A stretch of 64,000 nt of DNA from Frankiales bacterium (GTDB lineage: Bacteria; Actinomycetota; Actinomycetes; S36-B12; CAIYMF01), in the NCBI GenBank assembly GCA_016125335.1, contig WGLY01000017.1:186001-250000 (forward strand). The letters run 5' to 3'. Shown here piece after piece: positions 32,721 through 42,074 of this stretch (positions are counted from its first letter, which is position 1; every line of letters begins with the position of its first letter). The notes below the pieces were generated by a model. The model saw nothing but the letters and a program-made list of their open reading frames with translations, was not told the origin of the DNA and made no database searches. Both the position numbers and the translations under genes were made by a program.

Positions 32721-32939
32721 CGCCCGGGCGGGCCCGCCGCGGTACCTGCGCCGGGGAGAGCGTCGTCACAGCGGGGTTCGACCCGGGACCCGCAGGGCAT
32801 GAGACGCGGGCCACACGACGCCGATTCACAGGTGCGCAGCGAAACCTGGGACCGTCGTCGTACGTCGCACTCGATGCGGACCGGGCTGCCCGAGCACCCG
32901 GCCGGCGCCGTGATCACGGCGTGGACCAGGAGGAAGCCC
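32721..32939 (+). other. DUF5318-ponA intergenic leader
   Basis: This 219-bp gap has no credible gene. It contains a GC-rich self-complementary stretch just after the DUF5318 stop, and a GAAACC...CGTC pair (about 32850-32880) that weakly resembles an ECF-type promoter. A very strong AGGAGGAA ribosome site (32928-32935) sets the ponA start at GTG 32940. Confidence 0.5.
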
Positions 32940-35060
32940 GTGCGGATCGACTACCCGCGCCGGGGCCGCACCGGCGTGCGGCAATGGCTGCCGTCGTGGC
33001 GTCAGCTGCTGGCGCTCACGACCCTGGGCGTCGTCGTCGTGATCGGCGGCTTCCTGCTCGCGGTCGCCCGTACGACGGTCCCCTCGCCCAACGACATCGC
33101 GACGGCGCAGACCACGATCGTCTACTGGAACGACGGCACCACCGAGCTCGGCCGCCTCGGCGACGCCAACCGCATCAGCATCCCGCTCGAGCAGGTGCCG
33201 CTGAACACCCAGCACGCGGTGCTCGCCGCGGAGGACCGCGAGTTCTACGACGAGGGCGGCTTCTCGCCCAAGGGCGTCGTGCGCGCGATCTGGAACAACC
33301 TGTCCGGCGGCGACCTCCAGGGCGGGTCGACGATCACCCAGCAGTACGCGAAGAACGCCTTCCTCACCCAGGAGCGCACGCTCTCGCGCAAGGCGCAGGA
33401 GCTCATCCTCGCGGTCAAGCTCGACACCTCGGTGTCGAAGGACGAGATCCTCGGCGACTACCTCAACACCATCTACTTCGGCCGCGGCGCCTACGGGATC
33501 GAGACCGCGGCGCAGCAGTACTTCGGGGTCTCGGCGTCGAAGCTCAACCTCGGCCAGTCCGCGGCGCTGGCCGCGATCATCCGCTCGCCCGGCGGCTACG
33601 CGCCCGAGACCCACATGGACAAGCTCAAGGGCCGCTGGCAGTACGTGATCGACGGGATGCTCGAGAAGGGCTGGATCACGCAGGGCCAGCACGATGCGGT
33701 GAAGTTCCCCAAGTTCATCAAGCAGCGGACCACCGAGCGCTTCGCCGGCACCACCGGATACCTGCTCCAGGCGGTGCGCCAGGCGCTGCTCGCGCAGGGC
33801 ATCACCGAGGACGAGATCAACAGCGGCGGCCTGCGGGTGGTGACCACCTTCGACCAGAAGGCGCAGCAGGCGGCCGTCGACGCCGTGAAGACCGCCGGGC
33901 CCACCACCGGCACGTCGGGCCTCCGGATCGGCCTGGCGGCCGTGCGGCCGGGCACCGGCGAGGTGGTCGCGATGTACGGCGGCCCCGACTACCTGCACAA
34001 CTCCATCAACAACGCCACGCAGGCCCTCGGCCAGGCCGGGTCGACGTTCAAGCCGTTCGCGCTCGCCGCCGCCGTCGAGCAGGGCGTGAGCCTCGAGTCC
34101 AAGTGGAACGGCAACAACGGCGTCATGGTCGACGGCTACCGCGTCGTCAACTACGGCGACGAGTCGCTCGGCCGGATCTCCCTGCTGCGCGGCACCGAGC
34201 TGTCGGTCAACTCCGTCTACGTCGCCCTCTCGAGCCAGATCGGCTACGACAAGGTGGTCGACGCCGCGGTGCGCGCGGGGATCCCGGCGGACACCCCTGC
34301 CCTCACACCCGTGCGCACGGTGGCGCTCGGCGTGGCCTCGCCGCACGTCATCGACCTCGCCGACGCCTACGCGACGTTCGCGGCGCGGGGCGTGCAGGTG
34401 AGCCCCTCGGTGCTCAAGGAGGTGCGGGGCGGCAACGGCGGCATCCTGTTCCAGCTGAACCCGACGCCGAAGCAGGCGTTCTCCGCGGACACGGCCGACA
34501 CCGTCAACTACGCGCTGCAGAAGGTGGTCACCAACGGCACCGGGCGCACCGCGCTCGCGCTCGGCCGCCCGGCGGCCGGCAAGACCGGCACCACCAACGA
34601 CAACAAGTCGGCGCTCTTCGCCGGCTACACGCCGGACCTCGCCGCCGCGGTCATGTTCGTGCGCGACGGCAAGGACGGCCTGCCGGTCTCGCTCTCCGGC
34701 GTCGGCGGCCTCTCCACGGTGACCGGCGGCTCCTTCCCCGCCGCGATCTGGACCGCGTTCATGAAGGGCGCGCTCGACGGGACGCCGGTGTCGCAGTTCG
34801 CGCCGCCCACCAACCTGCCCACCGCCACGCCGACGCCGACCGCGACCGCCTCGCCCACGGTCACCGCGACCCCGACGCCGACCGCGACGCCCACGGACTC
34901 CGCGACGCCGACGGACACCGCGACGCCCACGGACACGGCCAGCCCCACGGGCTCGGCGAGCCCGACCGGCTCGGCCACCCCCACGGGCTCCCCGAGCCCC
35001 ACCGGCTCGGCCTCCGGGGGTGGCGGCGCGGGCGCCACAGGCGCCGCCGCCTCCCCCTAG
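32940..35060 (+). CDS. ponA: Bifunctional penicillin-binding protein (class A)
   Basis: The protein polymerises glycan strands and cross-links peptides. The 706-residue product has a basic N-terminus and one span (about 20-40). The glycosyltransferase domain (about 75-250) has AAEDREFYDEGG, GGSTITQQYAKNAFL and RKAQELILAVKLD. The transpeptidase domain has the nucleophile in GSTFKPF (Ser368), the SVN triad and KTGTTN. A Thr/Pro/Ser-rich tail of about 80 residues follows. GTG 32940 has AGGAGGAA at ideal distance, so the longer upstream frame is not used. It lies next to a GT87-like gene, as ponA1 does in mycobacteria. Confidence 0.95.
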   Translation: MRIDYPRRGRTGVRQWLPSWRQLLALTTLGVVVVIGGFLLAVARTTVPSPNDIATAQTTIVYWNDGTTELGRLGDANRISIPLEQVPLNTQHAVLAAEDREFYDEGGFSPKGVVRAIWNNLSGGDLQGGSTITQQYAKNAFLTQERTLSRKAQELILAVKLDTSVSKDEILGDYLNTIYFGRGAYGIETAAQQYFGVSASKLNLGQSAALAAIIRSPGGYAPETHMDKLKGRWQYVIDGMLEKGWITQGQHDAVKFPKFIKQRTTERFAGTTGYLLQAVRQALLAQGITEDEINSGGLRVVTTFDQKAQQAAVDAVKTAGPTTGTSGLRIGLAAVRPGTGEVVAMYGGPDYLHNSINNATQALGQAGSTFKPFALAAAVEQGVSLESKWNGNNGVMVDGYRVVNYGDESLGRISLLRGTELSVNSVYVALSSQIGYDKVVDAAVRAGIPADTPALTPVRTVALGVASPHVIDLADAYATFAARGVQVSPSVLKEVRGGNGGILFQLNPTPKQAFSADTADTVNYALQKVVTNGTGRTALALGRPAAGKTGTTNDNKSALFAGYTPDLAAAVMFVRDGKDGLPVSLSGVGGLSTVTGGSFPAAIWTAFMKGALDGTPVSQFAPPTNLPTATPTPTATASPTVTATPTPTATPTDSATPTDTATPTDTASPTGSASPTGSATPTGSPSPTGSASGGGGAGATGAAASP

Positions 35061-35075
35061 CGCCCCCGACGCGAT

Positions 35076-35130
35076 GTCACTGGTGGAACGGTCGCTTCCC
35101 GGCCCGGGAGACGACCGTTCCACCAGTGAC
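35076..35130. repeat. 55-bp palindromic repeat, copy 1
   Basis: Arms GTCACTGGTGGAACGGTCG (35076-35094) and its exact complement (35112-35130) flank a 17-bp centre, itself nearly symmetric around TCCCGG/CCGGGA. The same element recurs at 40270-40324 and in weaker form at 41540-41594. This copy lies 15 bp after the ponA stop and 51 bp before the GT87-like gene. It could act as terminator for ponA, as an operator, or as a REP-like element. Confidence 0.8.
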
Positions 35131-35181
35131 GTGCGGCCCGGACGGGAACGGTGCGCGGGGGCCGGTGCGTCGTAGGGCACG

Positions 35182-36801
35182 ATGAGCCCCGTGCCCGAGC
35201 CCGACGTCGTGCTGCCCTCCGACAGCGACCCGGTGGTCTACGCCGCCACCGAGCGGTTCGGCGGCGCCGCGGGGTTCCACCGCGGCCGCCTCGACGGCTT
35301 CTGGACCCCGCTGCGCGTGCTCGTGCTGCTCGCGACGATCGCGTTCCTGCTCGGCTACGTCCTCAAGATGCCGTGCCACGCGGAGGGCTGGGGCGGCGAC
35401 GCCCGCTACACGCACCTCTGCTACTCCGACATCCCCTACCTCTACGAGCTGCGGGGCTTCGCCGACGGCTGGCTGCCCTACCTGCAGACCGGCGACGGGC
35501 AGGGGCCGGCGCTGGAGTACCCGGTGCTCACCGGCGCCTTCATGCAGGTCGCCTCGATGCTCACCGGGCACTCGGGCACGGCGTCGGTCCGCTCGCTGGA
35601 GTTCTTCGACTGGAACGCGCTGCTGCTCTTCGGGTGCTTCCTCGTCACCGTCGTCGCCACCGCGCTGACCGTGCGGCGCCGTCCCTGGGACGCCGCCCTG
35701 GTGGCCCTCGCGCCCGGCATGATCCTGTGCGCCCTCATCAACTGGGACCTGCTCGCCGTGGCGCTCACGGCGCTGTCGATGCTCGCCTGGTCGCGCTCGA
35801 GACCCGGGTGGTCCGGCGTGCTGCTCGGGCTCGCGATCGCGGCGAAGTTCTACCCCGTGCTGCTGCTCGGCCCGCTGCTGGTGCTCGCCCTGCGCTCCGG
35901 CCGGTGGCGCGCCCTCGGCACGGCGGCAGGCGGCGCGGCCGGGGCCTGGCTGCTCGTCAACGTGCCGATCTACCTGGCCAACCCGGCGGGCTGGTCGGAG
36001 TTCTACACGTTCTCCTCCGACCGCGGCGCCGACTGGGGCTCGCTCTGGTACGCGCTTCAGGTGGTGGGCCTCCCGGTGCCGGAGGGCTCGCTCAACCTCG
36101 TCGCCGCGACGCTGCTCGGCGTGCTGTGCCTGGGCATCGCGGCGCTCGCCCTCACCGCGCGGGACCGGCCGCGCTACGCGCAGCTGGCCTTCCTCGTGGT
36201 GGCGGCGTTCTGCATCACCAACAAGGTGTACTCGCCGCAGTACGTCCTGTGGCTGATCCCGCTGGCCGCGATGGCCCGCCCGCGGTGGCGCGACTTCCTC
36301 GTCTGGCAGACCGGCGAGGTGCTCTACTTCGCCGCTATCTGGTGGTTCCTCCAGCAGTACGGCACCGACGCCAAGGGGCTGCCGCAGCCGGCGTACGTCC
36401 TCGCGATCGTGGTGCACGTCGTCGCGACGCTGTACTTCGCCGCCATGGTGGTGCGCGACATCCTGCGGCCCGAGCACGACCCGGTGCGCAGCGACGGCCA
36501 CCTCGACCACACCGACGACCCCGGGGGCGGCCCGTTCGACGGGGCTCCCGACGTCGTCGTGCTGCGCCGCCGCAGCGAGCGCGGGCCGGGGGCCCACGGC
36601 GGCGGCCCCGGCGGACCGGGCGGCCCCGGCGGCCCGAAGGGTCCCGACGGTCCCGACGGCGCTGGCGACGGACCGGCCGGCGTCGCCCTCCCGGTGCCCG
36701 GCCGGCCCGCGGAGGGCCCGGCCGACGACGACGTCGACGGCGTGCCCGTGGGCGCGCTCGACGAGCTGTTCTCCCGGCCCCCGGGCCGGCACTCCGGCTG
36801 A
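35182..36801 (+). CDS. GT87-like polyprenyl-sugar glycosyltransferase family membrane protein
   Basis: The 539-residue protein has about ten membrane spans. The first external loop (CHAEGWGGDARYTHLCYSDI, then EYPVLTGAFMQVAS) is typical of GT87 mannosyltransferase-like proteins encoded after ponA in Actinobacteria. Later features are GLAIAAKFYPVLLLGPLLVL and KVYSPQYVLWLIPLA. The last ~100 residues are cytoplasmic and low in complexity, with a Gly-Gly-Pro/Gly-Pro-x run. The acceptor and sugar are unknown. TAGGGC lies 3 nt before the ATG; the palindrome copy 1 is 51 bp upstream. Confidence 0.85.
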   Translation: MSPVPEPDVVLPSDSDPVVYAATERFGGAAGFHRGRLDGFWTPLRVLVLLATIAFLLGYVLKMPCHAEGWGGDARYTHLCYSDIPYLYELRGFADGWLPYLQTGDGQGPALEYPVLTGAFMQVASMLTGHSGTASVRSLEFFDWNALLLFGCFLVTVVATALTVRRRPWDAALVALAPGMILCALINWDLLAVALTALSMLAWSRSRPGWSGVLLGLAIAAKFYPVLLLGPLLVLALRSGRWRALGTAAGGAAGAWLLVNVPIYLANPAGWSEFYTFSSDRGADWGSLWYALQVVGLPVPEGSLNLVAATLLGVLCLGIAALALTARDRPRYAQLAFLVVAAFCITNKVYSPQYVLWLIPLAAMARPRWRDFLVWQTGEVLYFAAIWWFLQQYGTDAKGLPQPAYVLAIVVHVVATLYFAAMVVRDILRPEHDPVRSDGHLDHTDDPGGGPFDGAPDVVVLRRRSERGPGAHGGGPGGPGGPGGPKGPDGPDGAGDGPAGVALPVPGRPAEGPADDDVDGVPVGALDELFSRPPGRHSG

Positions 36802-36872
36802 CCGGGGGCCCGGCCCAGGCCGCGCCGGACCCCGCGACCGACGGACGCGACCGGGGCTCGGTCCGCGCCGGG

Positions 36873-38165
36873 TCAGTCCAGGCCGAGCACGCGGTCGGCG
36901 TGCAGCGTGGTCATCCGGACGTCGACGTCGACCTGCTCGCCCACCTCCGGCAGCGCCGTGCCGGCGGGCAGCCGCAGCAGCGAGACGTGCATGTGCGGCG
37001 GCTCGGCGAACCAGCGCTGGGCCCCGCCCACGTGGAACGGCGAGAGCGCCCGCCCGGCGGCGTCGAGCAGCCCGGTGCCCGCCACGACGGCGCGCTGCCG
37101 CCAGGACGCCGCCGGCGAGGGCGCCTCGAGCGCGATGCCGTGGGCCGTGCCGCCGCCCACGACCACCACCGCTCCGGCCCGCCCGGCCCGCCGCTGCCGG
37201 TAGCCGCTGGCCTGGCCGCGCACCACCTCGTGCACGGCGAGCACGGTGCCGCGCACCGCCAGCGCGCCGCGGTCGCCGAGCCAGAGCCGGGTGCCGATGC
37301 GGGCGTAGAGGGCCACGTCCGGCACCGCCGCGCGCAGCGCCGCGAGCTCGGCGTCGTCGAGGTGGCTCACCCACAGGGCGGCGGCGCTCGTGAGTGCGGT
37401 CACGGCCTCCGCGTCCGGGTCGCCCGCGCGCAGCCGGTCGGACAGGTCGGCGGCGGCGCGCACCCAGCCGAGCGCCCACGCGTGCGCCTCGGTGACGCGC
37501 GCCGTGGCGCCGGGCGGCGGCGCCGGGGCCACCCCCGCGTCGTGCCAGCGCGCCCCCGGCACGGAGCGGTGGTCGAGGTGCGGGGCGGCGAGGGGCAGGT
37601 GCAGCGCGAGCCCCTCCAGACGCACGCGCCCGGCGGCCAGCGCGTCGCGGGTGGACGGCGCCTCCAGGAGGTCGGCCAGCTCGGCGTCGGTGAGCCCGAA
37701 CCGGCCCATCGAGGTGAGCGCCTCGAGCACCACCCGCACCGGGCCGGGCCCGGCGGCGACGGCGTCCCACGCCTCGCGCGAGGACACCGTGCGCAGCACG
37801 CGGTCGGCGTAGGGCGCGTGCGCCACCTCGACCCAGGCCGCGCCCGCCACGGTGTCGCGCGGGTCGAACGGGGTGAGCACGAGGATGTCGCCGTCGTGGG
37901 CGCCGGCCACCTCGGCCACCTCGAACACCGTGCCGACGGCGATCCGCGTGAGCCCGAGCCGGCCCGCCTCCCGCGCGAGGCGCGCGTTGCCCAGCCCGTA
38001 GCCGTTGCCCTTCGCCACGGGCACGAGGTCGCCGAGGTGCACGTGGGGGCGCCCGGCGGCGGGGTCGGCGTGCACCGTGGAGCCGACCGCCCGGCGCACG
38101 TCGTCGCGGGTGCGCTCGGTGTGCGCGCGCCAGCGCGGCGCGTCGACGTACAGGCTCAGGGTCAT
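36873..38165 (-). CDS. Alanine racemase-fold PLP protein
   Basis: The 430-residue protein has the fold-type III PLP-lysine motif VPVAKGNGYGLG (Lys52). A central barrel is followed by a C-terminal beta domain with GDRGALAVRGTVLAVHEVVR, and a late PPHMHVSLLRLPAGT. It resembles a divergent alanine racemase group that in Actinobacteria lies beside a FemAB gene, so it may provide or modify an amino acid for the peptidoglycan cross-bridge (inference). The standard racemase Tyr region is not obvious, and racemase activity is unproven. TAGGTT 6 nt before the ATG suggests a leaderless transcript. Confidence 0.75.
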   Translation of the reverse strand: MTLSLYVDAPRWRAHTERTRDDVRRAVGSTVHADPAAGRPHVHLGDLVPVAKGNGYGLGNARLAREAGRLGLTRIAVGTVFEVAEVAGAHDGDILVLTPFDPRDTVAGAAWVEVAHAPYADRVLRTVSSREAWDAVAAGPGPVRVVLEALTSMGRFGLTDAELADLLEAPSTRDALAAGRVRLEGLALHLPLAAPHLDHRSVPGARWHDAGVAPAPPPGATARVTEAHAWALGWVRAAADLSDRLRAGDPDAEAVTALTSAAALWVSHLDDAELAALRAAVPDVALYARIGTRLWLGDRGALAVRGTVLAVHEVVRGQASGYRQRRAGRAGAVVVVGGGTAHGIALEAPSPAASWRQRAVVAGTGLLDAAGRALSPFHVGGAQRWFAEPPHMHVSLLRLPAGTALPEVGEQVDVDVRMTTLHADRVLGLD

Positions 38166-38171
38166 GCGCCC

Positions 38172-38177
38172 AACCTA
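38172..38177 (-). promoter_or_regulatory. Minus-10 element of the racemase-like gene, leaderless
   Basis: TAGGTT on the minus strand ends 6 nt before ATG 38165, with no ribosome site. Confidence 0.5.
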
Positions 38178-38214
38178 GGGGGACGCCGGACCCGCACGCC
38201 CCGCCTCGGGCGGG

Positions 38215-39351
38215 TCAGCGGCGGCTGAGGTAGGCGTCCACCGCGCGCGCCATGATCGGGCGCAGCCGCAGGTCCCACTCGCCGAGGTACTCCAGCGCGT
38301 GGCCCCCGGTGCCCAGCTTGAACTGGATGAGGCCGAAGAGGTCGTCGTCGGGGTCGAGGGTGTCGCTGATCCCGCGCAGGTCGTACACGCGGCAGCCGGC
38401 GGCGAGCGAGTCGCGGATCATCGCCCACTGCACCGCGTTGGACGGGCGCACCTCGCGCCCCGCGCTCGAGGACGCGCCGTAGGAGTACCAGGCGTGCGCG
38501 CCGACGCGGACCAGCGTCGTGGCCGCCAGCACCCGGCCCTCGTGACGGGCCAGGTAGAGCGTGATGCGCTCCGGGTCCTCCTCGCGCATGGCGTGCCACA
38601 TGCGCTGGAAGTAGGGCAGGCCGCGCGGGGTGAACCCGTCGCGCGCGGCCGTCTCGACGTACACCTCGTGGAAGGCGGGCAGGTCGTCGTAGCCGCCGTG
38701 GACCACCTCGACGCCGGCCTTCTCGGCCTTCTTGATGTTGCGCCGCCACAGCTGGTTGAACCCGGCCAGGACGTCGTCCTCGGTACGGCCGGCCAGCGGG
38801 ACCTGGAACACGTAGCGCGGCTGGACGTCGCCGAAGCCGGCCCCGATGTCGGCCTTCTGCGTCCACCCCAGCGCGCGCAGCCGCTCGGCCACGGCCTCCG
38901 CCTGCGGGTGGGTCTCGTCGGCGGGCACGTCGCGCAGCCGGCGCGCCGACCCCTCGGCGATCGCGTCCTTGAGGGTGCCGGCGTCCCAGCGGCGCACTGC
39001 GACCGGCGGCCCCATCTTCACCGCGAACGCGCCGACCCCCCGCAGGTGCGCCGTCATGGGGGCGAGCCAGTCGGCGAGGTCGCGCTCGCCGGTCCAGTCG
39101 ATGTCGGGTCCCTCGGGCAGGTAGGCCAGGTAGCGGCGCACGCGCGGCACCTGGCGCAGCAGCACGAGCCCCGCGCCCACGAGGGTGTCGCCGTCGAACC
39201 AGCCGAGCGACAGGTGCTGCCACTCGGCCTTCACCCCGGCCCAGCTGGGCAGCTGGAGGAACGAGATGCGGCCGCTGTCCTGGTGGCGGCGCACGTGCGC
39301 GAGGTGCTCGTCGGCACTGATCCGGCGGACGACGAGGGGCGAGGACGGCAC
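38215..39351 (-). CDS. FemAB/FemX-family peptidoglycan bridge aminoacyltransferase
   Basis: The enzyme adds an amino acid from aminoacyl-tRNA to the stem peptide or lipid II. The 378-residue protein consists of two GNAT-like halves. Family segments include FLQLPSWAGVKAEWQHLSLG, YLPEGPDIDWT, VFQVPLAGRTEDDVLAGFNQ followed by LWRRNIKKAEKAGVEV, and YDLRGISDTLDPDDDLFGLI followed by QFKLGTGG. A coiled-coil arm is absent. Adjacent to the racemase-like gene on the same strand, it suggests a dedicated cross-bridge module. The added residue cannot be deduced. TAGGCT ends 7 nt before the GTG. Confidence 0.9.
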   Translation of the reverse strand: MPSSPLVVRRISADEHLAHVRRHQDSGRISFLQLPSWAGVKAEWQHLSLGWFDGDTLVGAGLVLLRQVPRVRRYLAYLPEGPDIDWTGERDLADWLAPMTAHLRGVGAFAVKMGPPVAVRRWDAGTLKDAIAEGSARRLRDVPADETHPQAEAVAERLRALGWTQKADIGAGFGDVQPRYVFQVPLAGRTEDDVLAGFNQLWRRNIKKAEKAGVEVVHGGYDDLPAFHEVYVETAARDGFTPRGLPYFQRMWHAMREEDPERITLYLARHEGRVLAATTLVRVGAHAWYSYGASSSAGREVRPSNAVQWAMIRDSLAAGCRVYDLRGISDTLDPDDDLFGLIQFKLGTGGHALEYLGEWDLRLRPIMARAVDAYLSRR

Positions 39352-39358
39352 GGCGGCG

Positions 39359-39364
39359 AGCCTA
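39359..39364 (-). promoter_or_regulatory. Minus-10 element of the FemAB gene, leaderless
   Basis: TAGGCT on the minus strand ends 7 nt before GTG 39351. Confidence 0.5.
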
Positions 39365-39441
39365 CGGGCCCGCCGGGCCGGTCGCGGCCGGCCGCCGCGG
39401 GCGGCGTGACGAGCGCCTCGCCGGCGGTGGGCCCAGCGGCC

Positions 39442-40236
39442 TCAGCGCGCGACGTCGACCACGACGGGGGCGTGGTCGGACGGCGGCGTGCTGCCCTTCG
39501 GGCCGGGCTTGCGGGCCTCGCGGTCGACGTAGGAGTCGGTCACGGCGTCGTGCAGGGCGGGCGAGGCGAAGACCAGGTCGATGCGCATGCCGGTGTTCTT
39601 CGGGAACGACAGCTGCCGGTAGTCCCAGTAGGTGTAGGGCGTGTCGTACTTCAGCGCCCGCGGCACCACCTCCACGAGGCCGGCGTCGACGAGGGCCGAC
39701 ACCGCCGCGCGCTCGGCCGGCGTCACGTGGGTGGCGCCCTCGAACCTCGAGATGTCCCAGACGTCGGAGTCGGTGGGTGCGACGTTGAAGTCGCCCAGGA
39801 TGACCAGCGGCTCGGGACGCGCCAGGTCGGCCACCGCGGCGGCCCGCAGCGCCGCGAGCCAGTCGAGCTTGTAGGAGTAGTGCGGGTCGTCCACGGCGCG
39901 GCCGTTCGGGACGTACACCGACCACACGCGCACGCCCCCGCACGTGGCGCCGACCGCCCGCGGCTCGGTGGCGCCGTCGAACGCGGGCTGGCCGGGCAGG
40001 TCGCGCACGACGTCGTCGAGGCCCACGCGCGAGAGGATCGCGACGCCGTTCCACCGGCCGGTGCCGTGCGCTGCCACCTCGTAGCCGGCCTCGCGGACGG
40101 CGTCGACGGGGAACTCCGCGGCCGCGACCTTGAGCTCCTGCAGGCACAGCACGTCCGGCTCGGCCGAGGCCAGCCAGGCCAGCAGGCGGTCGGTGCGGAC
40201 GGCGACGGAGTTGATGTTCCAGGTGGCGATGCGCAC
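39442..40236 (-). CDS. xthA: Exodeoxyribonuclease III
   Basis: This AP endonuclease and 3'-5' exonuclease acts in base excision repair. The 264-residue product is of normal length and has every family motif: RIATWNINSV, LCLQELKV, the Tyr region VWSVYVPNGR, LGDFNVAP, MRIDLVFAS and DHAPVVVD. GTG 40236 gives VRIATWNINSVAVR; longer upstream reading passes through the palindrome and is not homologous. CAGGAT lies 6 nt before the GTG, and the 55-bp palindrome ends 33 nt before it, the same layout as for the next gene. Confidence 0.95.
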   Translation of the reverse strand: MRIATWNINSVAVRTDRLLAWLASAEPDVLCLQELKVAAAEFPVDAVREAGYEVAAHGTGRWNGVAILSRVGLDDVVRDLPGQPAFDGATEPRAVGATCGGVRVWSVYVPNGRAVDDPHYSYKLDWLAALRAAAVADLARPEPLVILGDFNVAPTDSDVWDISRFEGATHVTPAERAAVSALVDAGLVEVVPRALKYDTPYTYWDYRQLSFPKNTGMRIDLVFASPALHDAVTDSYVDREARKPGPKGSTPPSDHAPVVVDVAR

Positions 40237-40242
40237 GCCCCG

Positions 40243-40248
40243 ATCCTG
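40243..40248 (-). promoter_or_regulatory. Minus-10 element of xthA, leaderless
   Basis: CAGGAT on the minus strand ends 6 nt before GTG 40236. The 11-mer TGCCAGGATCG is shared with the MalY-like gene at the identical distance. Confidence 0.5.
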
Positions 40249-40269
40249 GCACCACCCACCCACCGCGAT

Positions 40270-40324
40270 GTCACTGGTGGAACGGTCGTCACCCGGACCG
40301 GGAAGCGACCGTTCCACCAGTGAC
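40270..40324. repeat. 55-bp palindromic repeat, copy 2
   Basis: Both 19-bp arms (40270-40288, 40306-40324) are identical to copy 1. Read on the minus strand, the 17-bp centre matches copy 1 at 15 positions, so both copies have the same orientation relative to the gene that follows. It lies 6 bp after the MalY-like stop and 33 nt before the xthA start. Confidence 0.82.
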
Positions 40325-40330
40325 GTCGGG

Positions 40331-41506
40331 TCAGGCCAGCGCGGCCGCGATCCGCTCGACCGCGGTGGCCAGCGTCGCGCGGCTCGCGGCCAGGTTGAGG
40401 CGCACGTGCTGCTCGCCGCCCGGGCCGAAGGGCAGCCCGGAGCTCAGCGCCACCCCCGCCCGCTCGACCAGCGTCTCGGCGGGGTCCTCGCCCAGGCCGA
40501 GCGCGGAGACGTCGAGCCACGCCAGGTACGTGGCCTGCGGCGGGCGGTAGCCCACCTGCGGCAGGTGCTCGGCGAGGAGCCGGCCGAGGTGCTCGGCGTT
40601 GGCGGCGATCGCGGCGTTGACGGCGTCGAGCCAGGCGTCGCCGTGCCGCCAGGCGGCCACGTGCGCCAGCACGCCGAGGTAGCTCGCGCCGTAGCGGGCC
40701 TCGAGCGGGATCTGCTCGACGAGCGCGGCGGACGCCGGGCCCGCGACCACGAGGCCGGCCTTGAGCCCGGCCAGGTTGTAGGCCTTGCTGGCCGAGGTGA
40801 CCACGAAGCCGCGCTCGGCCACGGCGAGGTAGGGGGTGAACCGCGTGCCCTCGGGCACGAGCAGGCCGTGGATCTCGTCGACCACGACGGTCGCCCCCGC
40901 GGCGTCGGCCACGGCCGCGGCCCCGCGCAGCTCGTCGGCGGTGTGCACGGTGCCGGTGGGGTTGTGCGGGCTGCACAGCAGCAGCGCGGTGGCGTCGGGT
41001 TCCGCCAGCGCCGCGGCCACGGCGTCGAGGTCGAGCCGGTCGTCCGGGCCGAGCGGCACAGGGACGACGCGGCGTCCCATGGCGGCGGTGAACTCCAGCA
41101 GCGGCGGGTACACGGGCGCGGGCACCACGACCGCGTCGCCGGGCCGCGTGACGAGGCGGAGCACCTCGCGCACCCCGGCCAGCACGTCGGCGACCACGCA
41201 GGTGGCCGCCGGGTCCGGGGCCCAGCCCCAGTGCCGGGCGGCGGCCTCGGAGAAGGCCTCGGCGTAGGAGGTGTCCATCGGCGGGTAGCCGGTGTCGCCC
41301 CGGGACATGGCGGCGCAGACGGCGTCCACGACGGCCGGGGCGGGCAGCGCGTCCATCTCCGCGACCCACAGCGGCAGCACGTCCGGGCCGTAGCGGGTCC
41401 ACTTCACCGAGCCGCGGGTGCGCAGCTCGGCCAGGCTCAGCTGCTCGAACGGCTCGGCCGGGCCGGACGGCTCGGGCGGTGCGGCGGGATCGGGCGGGAT
41501 GCTCAC
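40331..41506 (-). CDS. MalY/PatB-type PLP aminotransferase (cystathionine beta-lyase family)
   Basis: The 391-residue fold-type I enzyme has WTRYGPDVLPLWVAEMDALP, DTGYPPMD, LCSPHNPTGTVHTADEL, DEIHGLLV and the Schiff-base lysine in TSASKAYNLAGLKAGLVV (about residue 240). These are typical of MalY/PatB C-S lyases, which release homocysteine or pyruvate/thiol from cystathionine-like substrates. The exact reaction is not certain. GTG 41506 begins VSIPPDPAAP. CAGGAT is 6 nt before the start and a degenerate copy of the palindrome ends 33 nt before it; copy 2 lies just past its stop. Confidence 0.88.
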   Translation of the reverse strand: MSIPPDPAAPPEPSGPAEPFEQLSLAELRTRGSVKWTRYGPDVLPLWVAEMDALPAPAVVDAVCAAMSRGDTGYPPMDTSYAEAFSEAAARHWGWAPDPAATCVVADVLAGVREVLRLVTRPGDAVVVPAPVYPPLLEFTAAMGRRVVPVPLGPDDRLDLDAVAAALAEPDATALLLCSPHNPTGTVHTADELRGAAAVADAAGATVVVDEIHGLLVPEGTRFTPYLAVAERGFVVTSASKAYNLAGLKAGLVVAGPASAALVEQIPLEARYGASYLGVLAHVAAWRHGDAWLDAVNAAIAANAEHLGRLLAEHLPQVGYRPPQATYLAWLDVSALGLGEDPAETLVERAGVALSSGLPFGPGGEQHVRLNLAASRATLATAVERIAAALA

Positions 41507-41512
41507 GGCGCG

Positions 41513-41518
41513 ATCCTG
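41513..41518 (-). promoter_or_regulatory. Minus-10 element of the MalY-like gene, leaderless
   Basis: CAGGAT on the minus strand ends 6 nt before GTG 41506, embedded in the same TGCCAGGATCG as for xthA. Confidence 0.45.
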
Positions 41519-41539
41519 GCACCTCCGTGCCGGCGCGAC

Positions 41540-41594
41540 GTGACTGGTGGAAGGGTCGCGTCCCGGCGCTGGATGCGACCGTTCCCCCGTGAAC
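41540..41594. repeat. 55-bp palindromic repeat, copy 3 (degenerate)
   Basis: Arms GTGACTGGTGGAAGGGTCG (41540-41558) and CGACCGTTCCCCCGTGAAC (41576-41594) each differ from copies 1 and 2 at two or three positions, and the 17-bp centre length is kept. It lies between the divergent MalY-like gene and rpsF, so it cannot be a terminator for either. Confidence 0.72.
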
Positions 41595-41737
41595 CGCGCG
41601 GGTCGGGGGAGCGGGGTCGGCGGGCGACGGTTTGGGGCCCGGCCGCGGCCGCGGGTAGTCTGGGCCCCCACGCCGCCCGGCCGGGCGGGGCCCGCCGGGT
41701 CCCGCGGTGCCGGGCTCGTGACGCGTCAACCCTCCTG

Positions 41738-41783: not shown

Positions 41784-42074
41784 ATGCGTCGCTACGAGGT
41801 CATGGTGATCCTCGACCCCGATCTCGAGGAGCGCACCGTCGCCCCGAGTCTCGACACGTTCCTCAACGTGGTGAAGCAGGACGGCGGTTCCGTCGACAAG
41901 GTCGACATCTGGGGCCGTCGCCGTCTGTCCTTCGAGATCAACAAGAAGGCCGAGGGCATCTACGCCGTCCTCGACCTCACCTGCAACCCCGCCGCGGTGC
42001 AGGAGCTCGACCGCCAGCTCAACCTCAACGAGGCCGTGCTGCGCACCAAGGTCATGCGGCCCGAGGCCCACTGA
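41784..42074 (+). CDS. rpsF: 30S ribosomal protein S6
   Basis: The 96-residue product begins [20 protein letters not shown] and includes [20 protein letters not shown], typical of S6, a small-subunit protein that pairs with S18. AGGAGG is 11 nt before the ATG. It heads rpsF-ssb-rpsR-rplI and is divergent from the MalY-like gene. Confidence 0.97.

What the first reader, a model, noticed from the sequence alone, without database searches (positions are those of the whole stretch)
35076..41594. Three copies of a 55-bp palindrome, each upstream of a gene
Arms of 19 bp flank a 17-bp centre of constant length at 35076-35130, 40270-40324 and 41540-41594. Copies 1 and 2 have identical arms. Their centres match at 15 of 17 bases when each is read toward the following gene, so orientation is fixed relative to the GT87-like gene and xthA. 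Copy 3 is degenerate and precedes the MalY-like gene. Conservation of both sequence and length is more than a terminator needs. Copies 1 and 2 also follow stops closely, so terminator and REP-like readings remain open.
Basis: seen in the sequence. Interest (0 to 1): 0.65.

Follow-up and report, generated by a model that had tools for sequence, protein, structure and literature searches.

The report
Gene-end palindromes with genome-specific arms
The three palindromes are copies of a 67-base DNA hairpin found about 44 times in this bacterial genome, mostly just after a gene ends, and relatives carry hairpins of the same design with different arms in each genome, which makes it a REP-like repeat family for which I found no description.

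Summary
The three palindromes belong to a 44-copy family in this 3.93-Mb genome. The unit is 67 bp with a palindromic consensus; the "17-bp centre" is part of the stem. Of 44 copies, 27 lie between tandem genes (24 within 30 bp of the stop), 11 between convergent and 6, including copy 3, between divergent genes. Orientation is not fixed.

Relatives carry same-length palindromes with a related tip (near GGYYG-YYTCCCGG-N-CCGGGARR-CRRCC) but genome-specific arms; 297 double changes keep the pairing. At 5 of 6 orthologous sites each element's arms resemble its own genome's copies more than its ortholog: concerted replacement. The core model hits 41 of 394 genomes of the class (37 outside the family); an inside-out control hits 6.

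Best reading: REP-like dispersed palindromes kept at gene 3' ends, probably as bidirectional transcript-end hairpins. It fails REP membership (no tag, no RAYT transposase) and canonical-terminator membership (no U-run in 49 flanks). How it spreads is unknown.

The parts
35070..35136 (.). Copy 1 of the 67-bp palindrome (19-bp arms 35076-35094 and 35112-35130; inner palindrome 35095-35111). Its 55-bp core begins 15 bp after the stop of the penicillin-binding-protein gene and ends 51 bp before the GT87 gene
   Evidence: RNA fold -55.8 kcal/mol
40264..40330 (.). Copy 2. The 67-bp unit abuts the stop codon of the minus-strand aminotransferase gene (6 bp from the 55-bp core) and the core lies 33 bp upstream of the start of the minus-strand exonuclease (xthA-like) gene
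   Evidence: RNA fold -56.0 kcal/mol
41534..41600 (.). Copy 3, degenerate; divergent position, core 33 bp upstream of the aminotransferase start and 189 bp upstream of rpsF
   Evidence: weakest of the 44 (53.0 and 39.9 bits); RNA fold -37.1 kcal/mol
32874..35060 (+). Gene before copy 1: transglycosylase/transpeptidase (penicillin-binding protein)
   Evidence: Pfam PF00912, PF00905; start from my gene finder
35182..36801 (+). Gene after copy 1: GT87 glycosyltransferase
   Evidence: Pfam PF09594
39442..40236 (-). Exonuclease/endonuclease/phosphatase-family gene (xthA-like) whose start faces copy 2
40331..41506 (-). Aminotransferase class I/II gene between copies 2 and 3
41784..42074 (+). Ribosomal protein S6 gene (rpsF), on the other side of copy 3
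   Evidence: Pfam PF01250

Best explanation
The sites are members of an interspersed palindromic repeat family that works like REP elements: short, non-coding, hairpin-forming DNA units that have multiplied in the genome and persist at the 3' ends of genes. Shown: 44 copies of one 67-bp palindrome; strong placement just after stop codons; some copies supplying the stop codon itself; the same design with a related tip and genome-specific arms in relatives and in some other genomes of the class; pairing of the arms kept through large sequence change; arms more alike within a genome than between orthologous sites. Inferred: (1) copies are spread or overwritten by an unidentified trans-acting activity or by ectopic recombination, so arms turn over together; (2) they are kept at gene ends because a symmetric hairpin there ends or protects transcripts from both sides (Rho-dependent or U-less 3' end, exonuclease barrier) and does no harm; (3) recombination between copies reshuffles the genes between them.
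For: 44 copies, palindromic consensus. Own genome: 24 of 27 tandem copies closer to the stop; 24 within 30 bp of it where random placement in the same gaps gives 11.3 (0 of 20,000 simulations reach 24); all 22 stops flanking the 11 convergent copies are within 20 bp or inside the element. Eight other genomes of the family, 70 fetched sites: 27 of 32 tandem copies closer to the stop; stop codon inside the element at 19 of 59 tandem or convergent sites (e.g. L124/L104, L126/L103). Pairing across genomes (57 sequences): 83.4% of cells paired, 297 double changes, 0 of 500 shuffles as high. Arm identity within a genome exceeds that to every other genome in 7 of 8 genomes compared (G000 0.87 against at most 0.65; exception G284, poor register), while the core of G000 is as like G010 and G006 (0.76, 0.79) as itself (0.78). 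Orthologous sites: arm identity 0.30-0.64 to the ortholog, 0.52-0.92 to the own genome, in 5 of 6 pairs. Class scan 41 of 394 genomes against 6 of 394 for the inside-out control; 37 against 6 outside the family. Three copies sharing arms viewed in each of Leucobacter chromiireducens and Actinoplanes xinjiangensis. Close pairs: 8 against 1.7 expected, P 0.00035 (2.5 and P 0.0016 with contig counts kept). Element-gene-element in one genome against a single element in another: L152/L108, L106/L132.
Against: No mobilising enzyme: Y1 transposase absent from all 17 family genomes searched. No target-site duplication. No exact empty site or excision was seen. 8 of 17 family genomes (4 of 10 congeners) have no match, so it is not needed for life in the genus. 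Six of 44 own copies are divergent, five only 1-49 bp from both starts, which a pure 3'-end role does not predict. None of the 8 convergent gaps in the window holds a copy. G-U and A-C mispairs are equally frequent on the sense strand (60 and 54 in 46 tandem copies): no sign of selection on one RNA strand. Within G000 alone the arms pair no better than shuffled (83.9% against 84.9%). The tip is looser in G009, G239 and G011 (0.62, 0.63, 0.55 identity to G000). No RNA data.
Confidence: 0.6

Rival explanations
1. They are transcription terminators and nothing more: each copy is a bidirectional terminator that evolved in place and is alike by function.
For: Placement after stops (own tandem copies: median 12 bp) and between convergent genes; very stable hairpins. 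Structured 3' ends without a U-run outnumber those with one in a high-GC streptomycete, 353 to 182 (PMC8269248, passages seen).
Against: A terminator does not need 67 fixed positions or arms shared by the copies of a genome and different in the next; TTT in 0 of 49 sense-side 15-nt downstream flanks; 6 of 44 copies divergent; none of the window's 8 convergent gaps has a copy, 3 of those gaps being at least 63 bp.
Confidence: 0.2
2. They are operators: a dimeric DNA-binding protein recognises the palindrome and controls neighbouring genes or chromosome structure; arms and protein co-evolve.
For: Dyad symmetry, constant length, arms changing together in each genome; no strand bias of mispairs; six copies in divergent gaps.
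Against: 11 of 44 copies lie between convergent genes with no start beside them and 24 of 27 tandem copies hug the stop. The 5 genes flanking the window copies and 10 genes beside other copies share no obvious function, though two of the 10 are aldehyde dehydrogenases.
Confidence: 0.12
3. They are recombination sites that bound gene cassettes, attC-like: a gene plus its 3' palindrome moves as a unit.
For: Element directly after the stop; 8 close pairs flanking 1 to 5 genes; element-gene-element against a single element at two loci.
Against: No cassette array in the stretches read; in one of the two cases the extra gene looks ancestral (a gene with a similar N-terminus, judged by eye, adjoins the same neighbour in G000, L068), which fits deletion between repeats. 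I did not search for attC boxes or an integrase.
Confidence: 0.06

Closest known systems
REP elements and REPINs (GTAG/CGTC-tagged palindromes; RAYT/TnpA-REP)
   Same: Short, dispersed, extragenic palindromes, many families of 20-100 units; CGTC repeats also lack a linked transposase (PMC3733652, passages seen); replacement of one REP class by another after an 'orthoswitch' is proposed for Pseudomonas and Stenotrophomonas (PMC3686654, passages seen)
   Different: Symmetric 67-bp unit instead of 20-40 bp with an unpaired tag at one end; conserved tip with variable arms; no RAYT. The string 'actino' does not occur in the main text of that REP survey
ERIC / IRU and other MITE-like palindromes (recalled)
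   Same: Imperfect palindromes of about 60-130 bp in intergenic DNA
   Different: No target duplication found; the arms, the shared part of a MITE family, are the part that differs between genomes here
U-less structured 3' ends ('I-shaped', HS-U-lack) of high-GC bacteria (PMC8269248, passages seen)
   Same: Stable GC-rich hairpin after the gene with no U-run
   Different: In the passages seen these are a structural class, not a repeat family
TRIT repeated terminators of Mycobacterium tuberculosis (recalled; my search with that name found 0 papers)
   Same: A terminator-like hairpin repeated as a sequence family
   Different: No link tested

Membership tests
REP (GTAG/CGTC superfamilies) | Unpaired GTAG or CGTC tag at one end of the palindrome | tested here: not met
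   Own consensus is symmetric with paired ends CCCGAT...ATCGGG
REP (GTAG/CGTC superfamilies) | Cognate RAYT (Y1 transposase, PF01797) in the genome; known for GTAG repeats, not for CGTC repeats | tested here: not met
   0 of 17 family f1 genomes; 3 of all 60 genomes searched
REP (GTAG/CGTC superfamilies) | Dispersed, mostly extragenic palindrome in many copies | tested here: met
   44 own copies, none wholly inside an ORF, 3 with a gene's stop inside them
Canonical intrinsic terminator | GC-rich hairpin after the stop codon | tested here: met
   38 of 44 copies by position; folds of the three window copies
Canonical intrinsic terminator | U-run directly after the hairpin | tested here: not met
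   TTT in 0 of 49 sense-side 15-nt flanks of own copies
Canonical intrinsic terminator | Mapped transcript 3' end | not testable with these tools
   no RNA data
MITE | Target-site duplication | tested here: not met
   Flank identity as in shuffles for 4 assumed element lengths and 6 repeat lengths; 2 of 24 tests had P below 0.05 (0.042, 0.024), not consistent with each other
MITE | Terminal repeats shared with an autonomous element | tested here: inconclusive
   43 arm pairs at 36 bp; the one arm match seen without a partner (C1:137220, 3 mismatches; L075) was not taken further; autonomous copies were not searched otherwise
Rfam families | Score above a family's gathering threshold | tested here: not met
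   Window: 0 matches. Sub-threshold matches over elements are miRNA hairpin families and one Fibro-purF; the only match above threshold in 6 outside loci is a tRNA, not the element

The most novel reading that the evidence does not exclude
A class-wide actinobacterial system of 'rewritable' palindromes: a conserved tip is recognised by a conserved factor, the arms are a genome-specific code, and an unknown, non-RAYT activity overwrites existing copies in place, so the sites in a genome change arms together and keep their position behind the same genes.
Probability: 0.2. Interest if true: 0.82.

Novelty: new variant of a known kind. Interest (0 to 1): 0.55.

Why it matters
How palindromic repeat families without a linked transposase spread is open (PMC3733652 discusses this for CGTC repeats, passages seen). 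This family has a clear anatomy, occurs in named species (Leucobacter chromiireducens, Actinoplanes xinjiangensis), and has orthologous sites whose arms were exchanged, so replacement in place can be tested directly. If the hairpins end transcripts, they would also mark gene ends in high-GC genomes, where terminators are hard to predict.

Tried and rejected
Gene-start signal with fixed orientation: rejected on placement; orientation 8 to 2 by eye. Outward -35 promoter boxes in the arm ends (GTGACA): spacings to -10-like boxes by eye were inconsistent and the arms differ in relatives; dropped. RNA-strand selection: G-U against A-C 60 to 54, no bias. A required mismatch in the stem: in G000 39 of 44 copies differ between arms at the four swap positions against 34.6 expected (P 0.04), not significant in G010, G006, G002 (P 0.82, 0.28, 0.19); left open. 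Within G000 alone covariation is below the shuffles, so the support for pairing comes from the cross-genome alignment, whose sequences outside G000 were found with a hairpin model (R1), which leans towards pairing. RAYT: absent. IS110 (PF01548): in 5 of 9 element-bearing and 0 of 8 element-free family genomes; absent from element-bearing G001, G008, G010, G011, so not the general mover. Exact-pattern scans of genome contigs and viral contigs for the own arms: 0 (the tool says records of the own genome may be left out).

Limits: gene calls come from my own codon-usage gene finder; distances are from the inner 61 bp, from the 55-bp core. Relatives' copies are the best-scoring ones fetched (70 sites in eight family genomes, 40 outside), not all copies; 3 of 70 and 9 of 40 lacked a gene call on a side and were left out of distances. 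Outside the family the placement is looser: 11 of 13 tandem copies closer to the stop, but 5 of 13 convergent with both stops within 30 bp. Of 15 loci from outside the family viewed (L165-L179), 9 show GGYYG on both arms by eye and 4 (L167, L169, L171, L175) are plain hairpins, so the 41 genomes include chance hits. The control model R3 was built from 28 sequences, R2 from 57; both scans drew 394 genomes, which I take to be the same draw; G040, G213 and G473 are hit by both models.

Full report
The observation. Copies 1 and 2 have identical, fully complementary 19-bp arms; copy 3 has 2 and 5 arm mismatches. The arm occurs 5 times in the window at up to 3 mismatches, against 0.05 in shuffles.

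Family in this genome. The arm occurs 78 times in the 3.93-Mb genome at up to 3 mismatches (39 per strand; 2 in all for the reversed control pattern). In the stretches read these give 43 copies with two arms 36 bp apart; a covariance model finds 44 places on both strands, adding C16:36118. The 43 align without a gap over 67 bp to a consensus that is a perfect palindrome around one free base, CCCGATGTCACTGGTGAAACGGTCGCTTCCCGG-N-CCGGGAAGCGACCGTTTCACCAGTGACATCGGG.

Placement. With my own gene calls, 27 copies lie between tandem genes, 11 between convergent and 6 between divergent genes, none wholly inside an ORF. In the tandem gaps 24 of 27 are nearer to the stop and 24 are within 30 bp of it; random placement in the same gaps gives 11.3. 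In three cases (L045, L053, L059) a gene's stop lies inside the element. The six divergent copies, copy 3 among them, do not fit a gene-end role; five of them fill nearly the whole gap. Of the genes beside copies I annotated 5 around the window copies (7 proteins scanned) and 10 elsewhere: no shared function, two aldehyde dehydrogenases. Eight neighbouring pairs lie within 3.5 kb, against 1.7 expected; copies 2 and 3 are one such pair, with the aminotransferase gene between them.

Relatives. At up to two mismatches the arm itself matches only once or twice in 10 of 98 relatives, while the reversed control hits 7; but the covariance model found palindromes of about the same length in relatives. 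A model built from several genomes (R2) gives, as matches on both strands divided by two, about 44 sites in G000, 68 in G002, 52 in G011, 35 in G009, 23 in G010, 21 in G006, 19 in G008, 8 in G001 and 6 in G014, and none in G003, G004, G005, G007, G012, G013, G015, G016 (at most 150 candidates scored per genome). The tip, near GGYYG-YYTCCCGG-N-CCGGGARR-CRRCC, is shared closely by G000, G010, G006 and G002 and more loosely by G009 and G011; the outer arms are each genome's own. Across genomes 26 of 31 pairs have double changes (3 of 500 shuffles as high), 297 cells in all (0 of 500).

Orthologous sites. I compared six pairs of elements at matching places in two genomes: in five both flanks match, in L132/L106 only the left gene. 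In five of the six, each element's arms resemble its own genome's copies more than its ortholog; the exception is a pair inside an ORF (L127/L112), which looks like an older copy left unconverted. In G006 and G010 the element often supplies the stop codon (e.g. L124/L104, L126/L103). At L152/L108 and L106/L132 one genome has element-gene-element where the other has one element; in the first case a similar gene adjoins the same neighbour in G000 (L068, by eye), which points to loss by recombination between copies.

Spread. R2 matches 41 of 394 genomes of the class at E 0.001, 37 of them outside the family; an inside-out model of equal pairing and composition matches 6 of 394, all outside the family. 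Outside the family, copies within a genome share arms in G239 (6 copies), Leucobacter chromiireducens (3 distinct copies viewed) and Actinoplanes xinjiangensis (3 distinct copies viewed). In Leucobacter the three copies lie 34-63 bp from a gene's stop by my gene calls; for Actinoplanes the gene calls were too poor to say.

What it is not. No Rfam family reaches its threshold over the element. No Y1 transposase in the family, no target duplication, no U-run, no RNA-strand bias of wobble pairs.

Literature. Papers seen as passages: PMC3733652, PMC3686654, PMC3116915, PMC8269248, PMC2267715; the rest as search listings. The ten searches showed no description of this family; the library lacks most subscription journals, so this is weak evidence of novelty.

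Mechanism. Shown: copy number, anatomy, placement, related tip, genome-specific arms, replacement at orthologous sites. Inferred: hairpin action at transcript ends, and spread by an unknown activity or by ectopic conversion.

Noticed in passing
G040 (C66:34465, C3:4872, C79:1496, C36:84963, C3:4208, C43:36566): The inside-out control model hit six places of 56-67 bp in one genome of the same order, possibly a separate repeated hairpin family; sequences not read.
   Followed up: no
L105-L114 (G010): Several G010 elements have ACAGC-like letters before and GCTGT-like letters after the 67-bp unit, as if an outer inverted repeat existed (by eye).
   Followed up: no
L127:1853-2668 and L112:2179-2991: A conserved ORF in two genomes reads through an element near its 3' end.
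   Followed up: partly
L065, L133, L123; L059, L145: Gene order breaks at the element: genes that share one element in G000 lie apart in a relative, each beside an element.
   Followed up: partly
family f1 genomes: IS110-type transposases occur in 5 of 9 element-bearing and 0 of 8 element-free genomes.
   Followed up: partly
window 34803-35057: The penicillin-binding protein before copy 1 ends in a low-complexity Pro/Thr/Ala/Ser-rich tail (read from the DNA).
   Followed up: no
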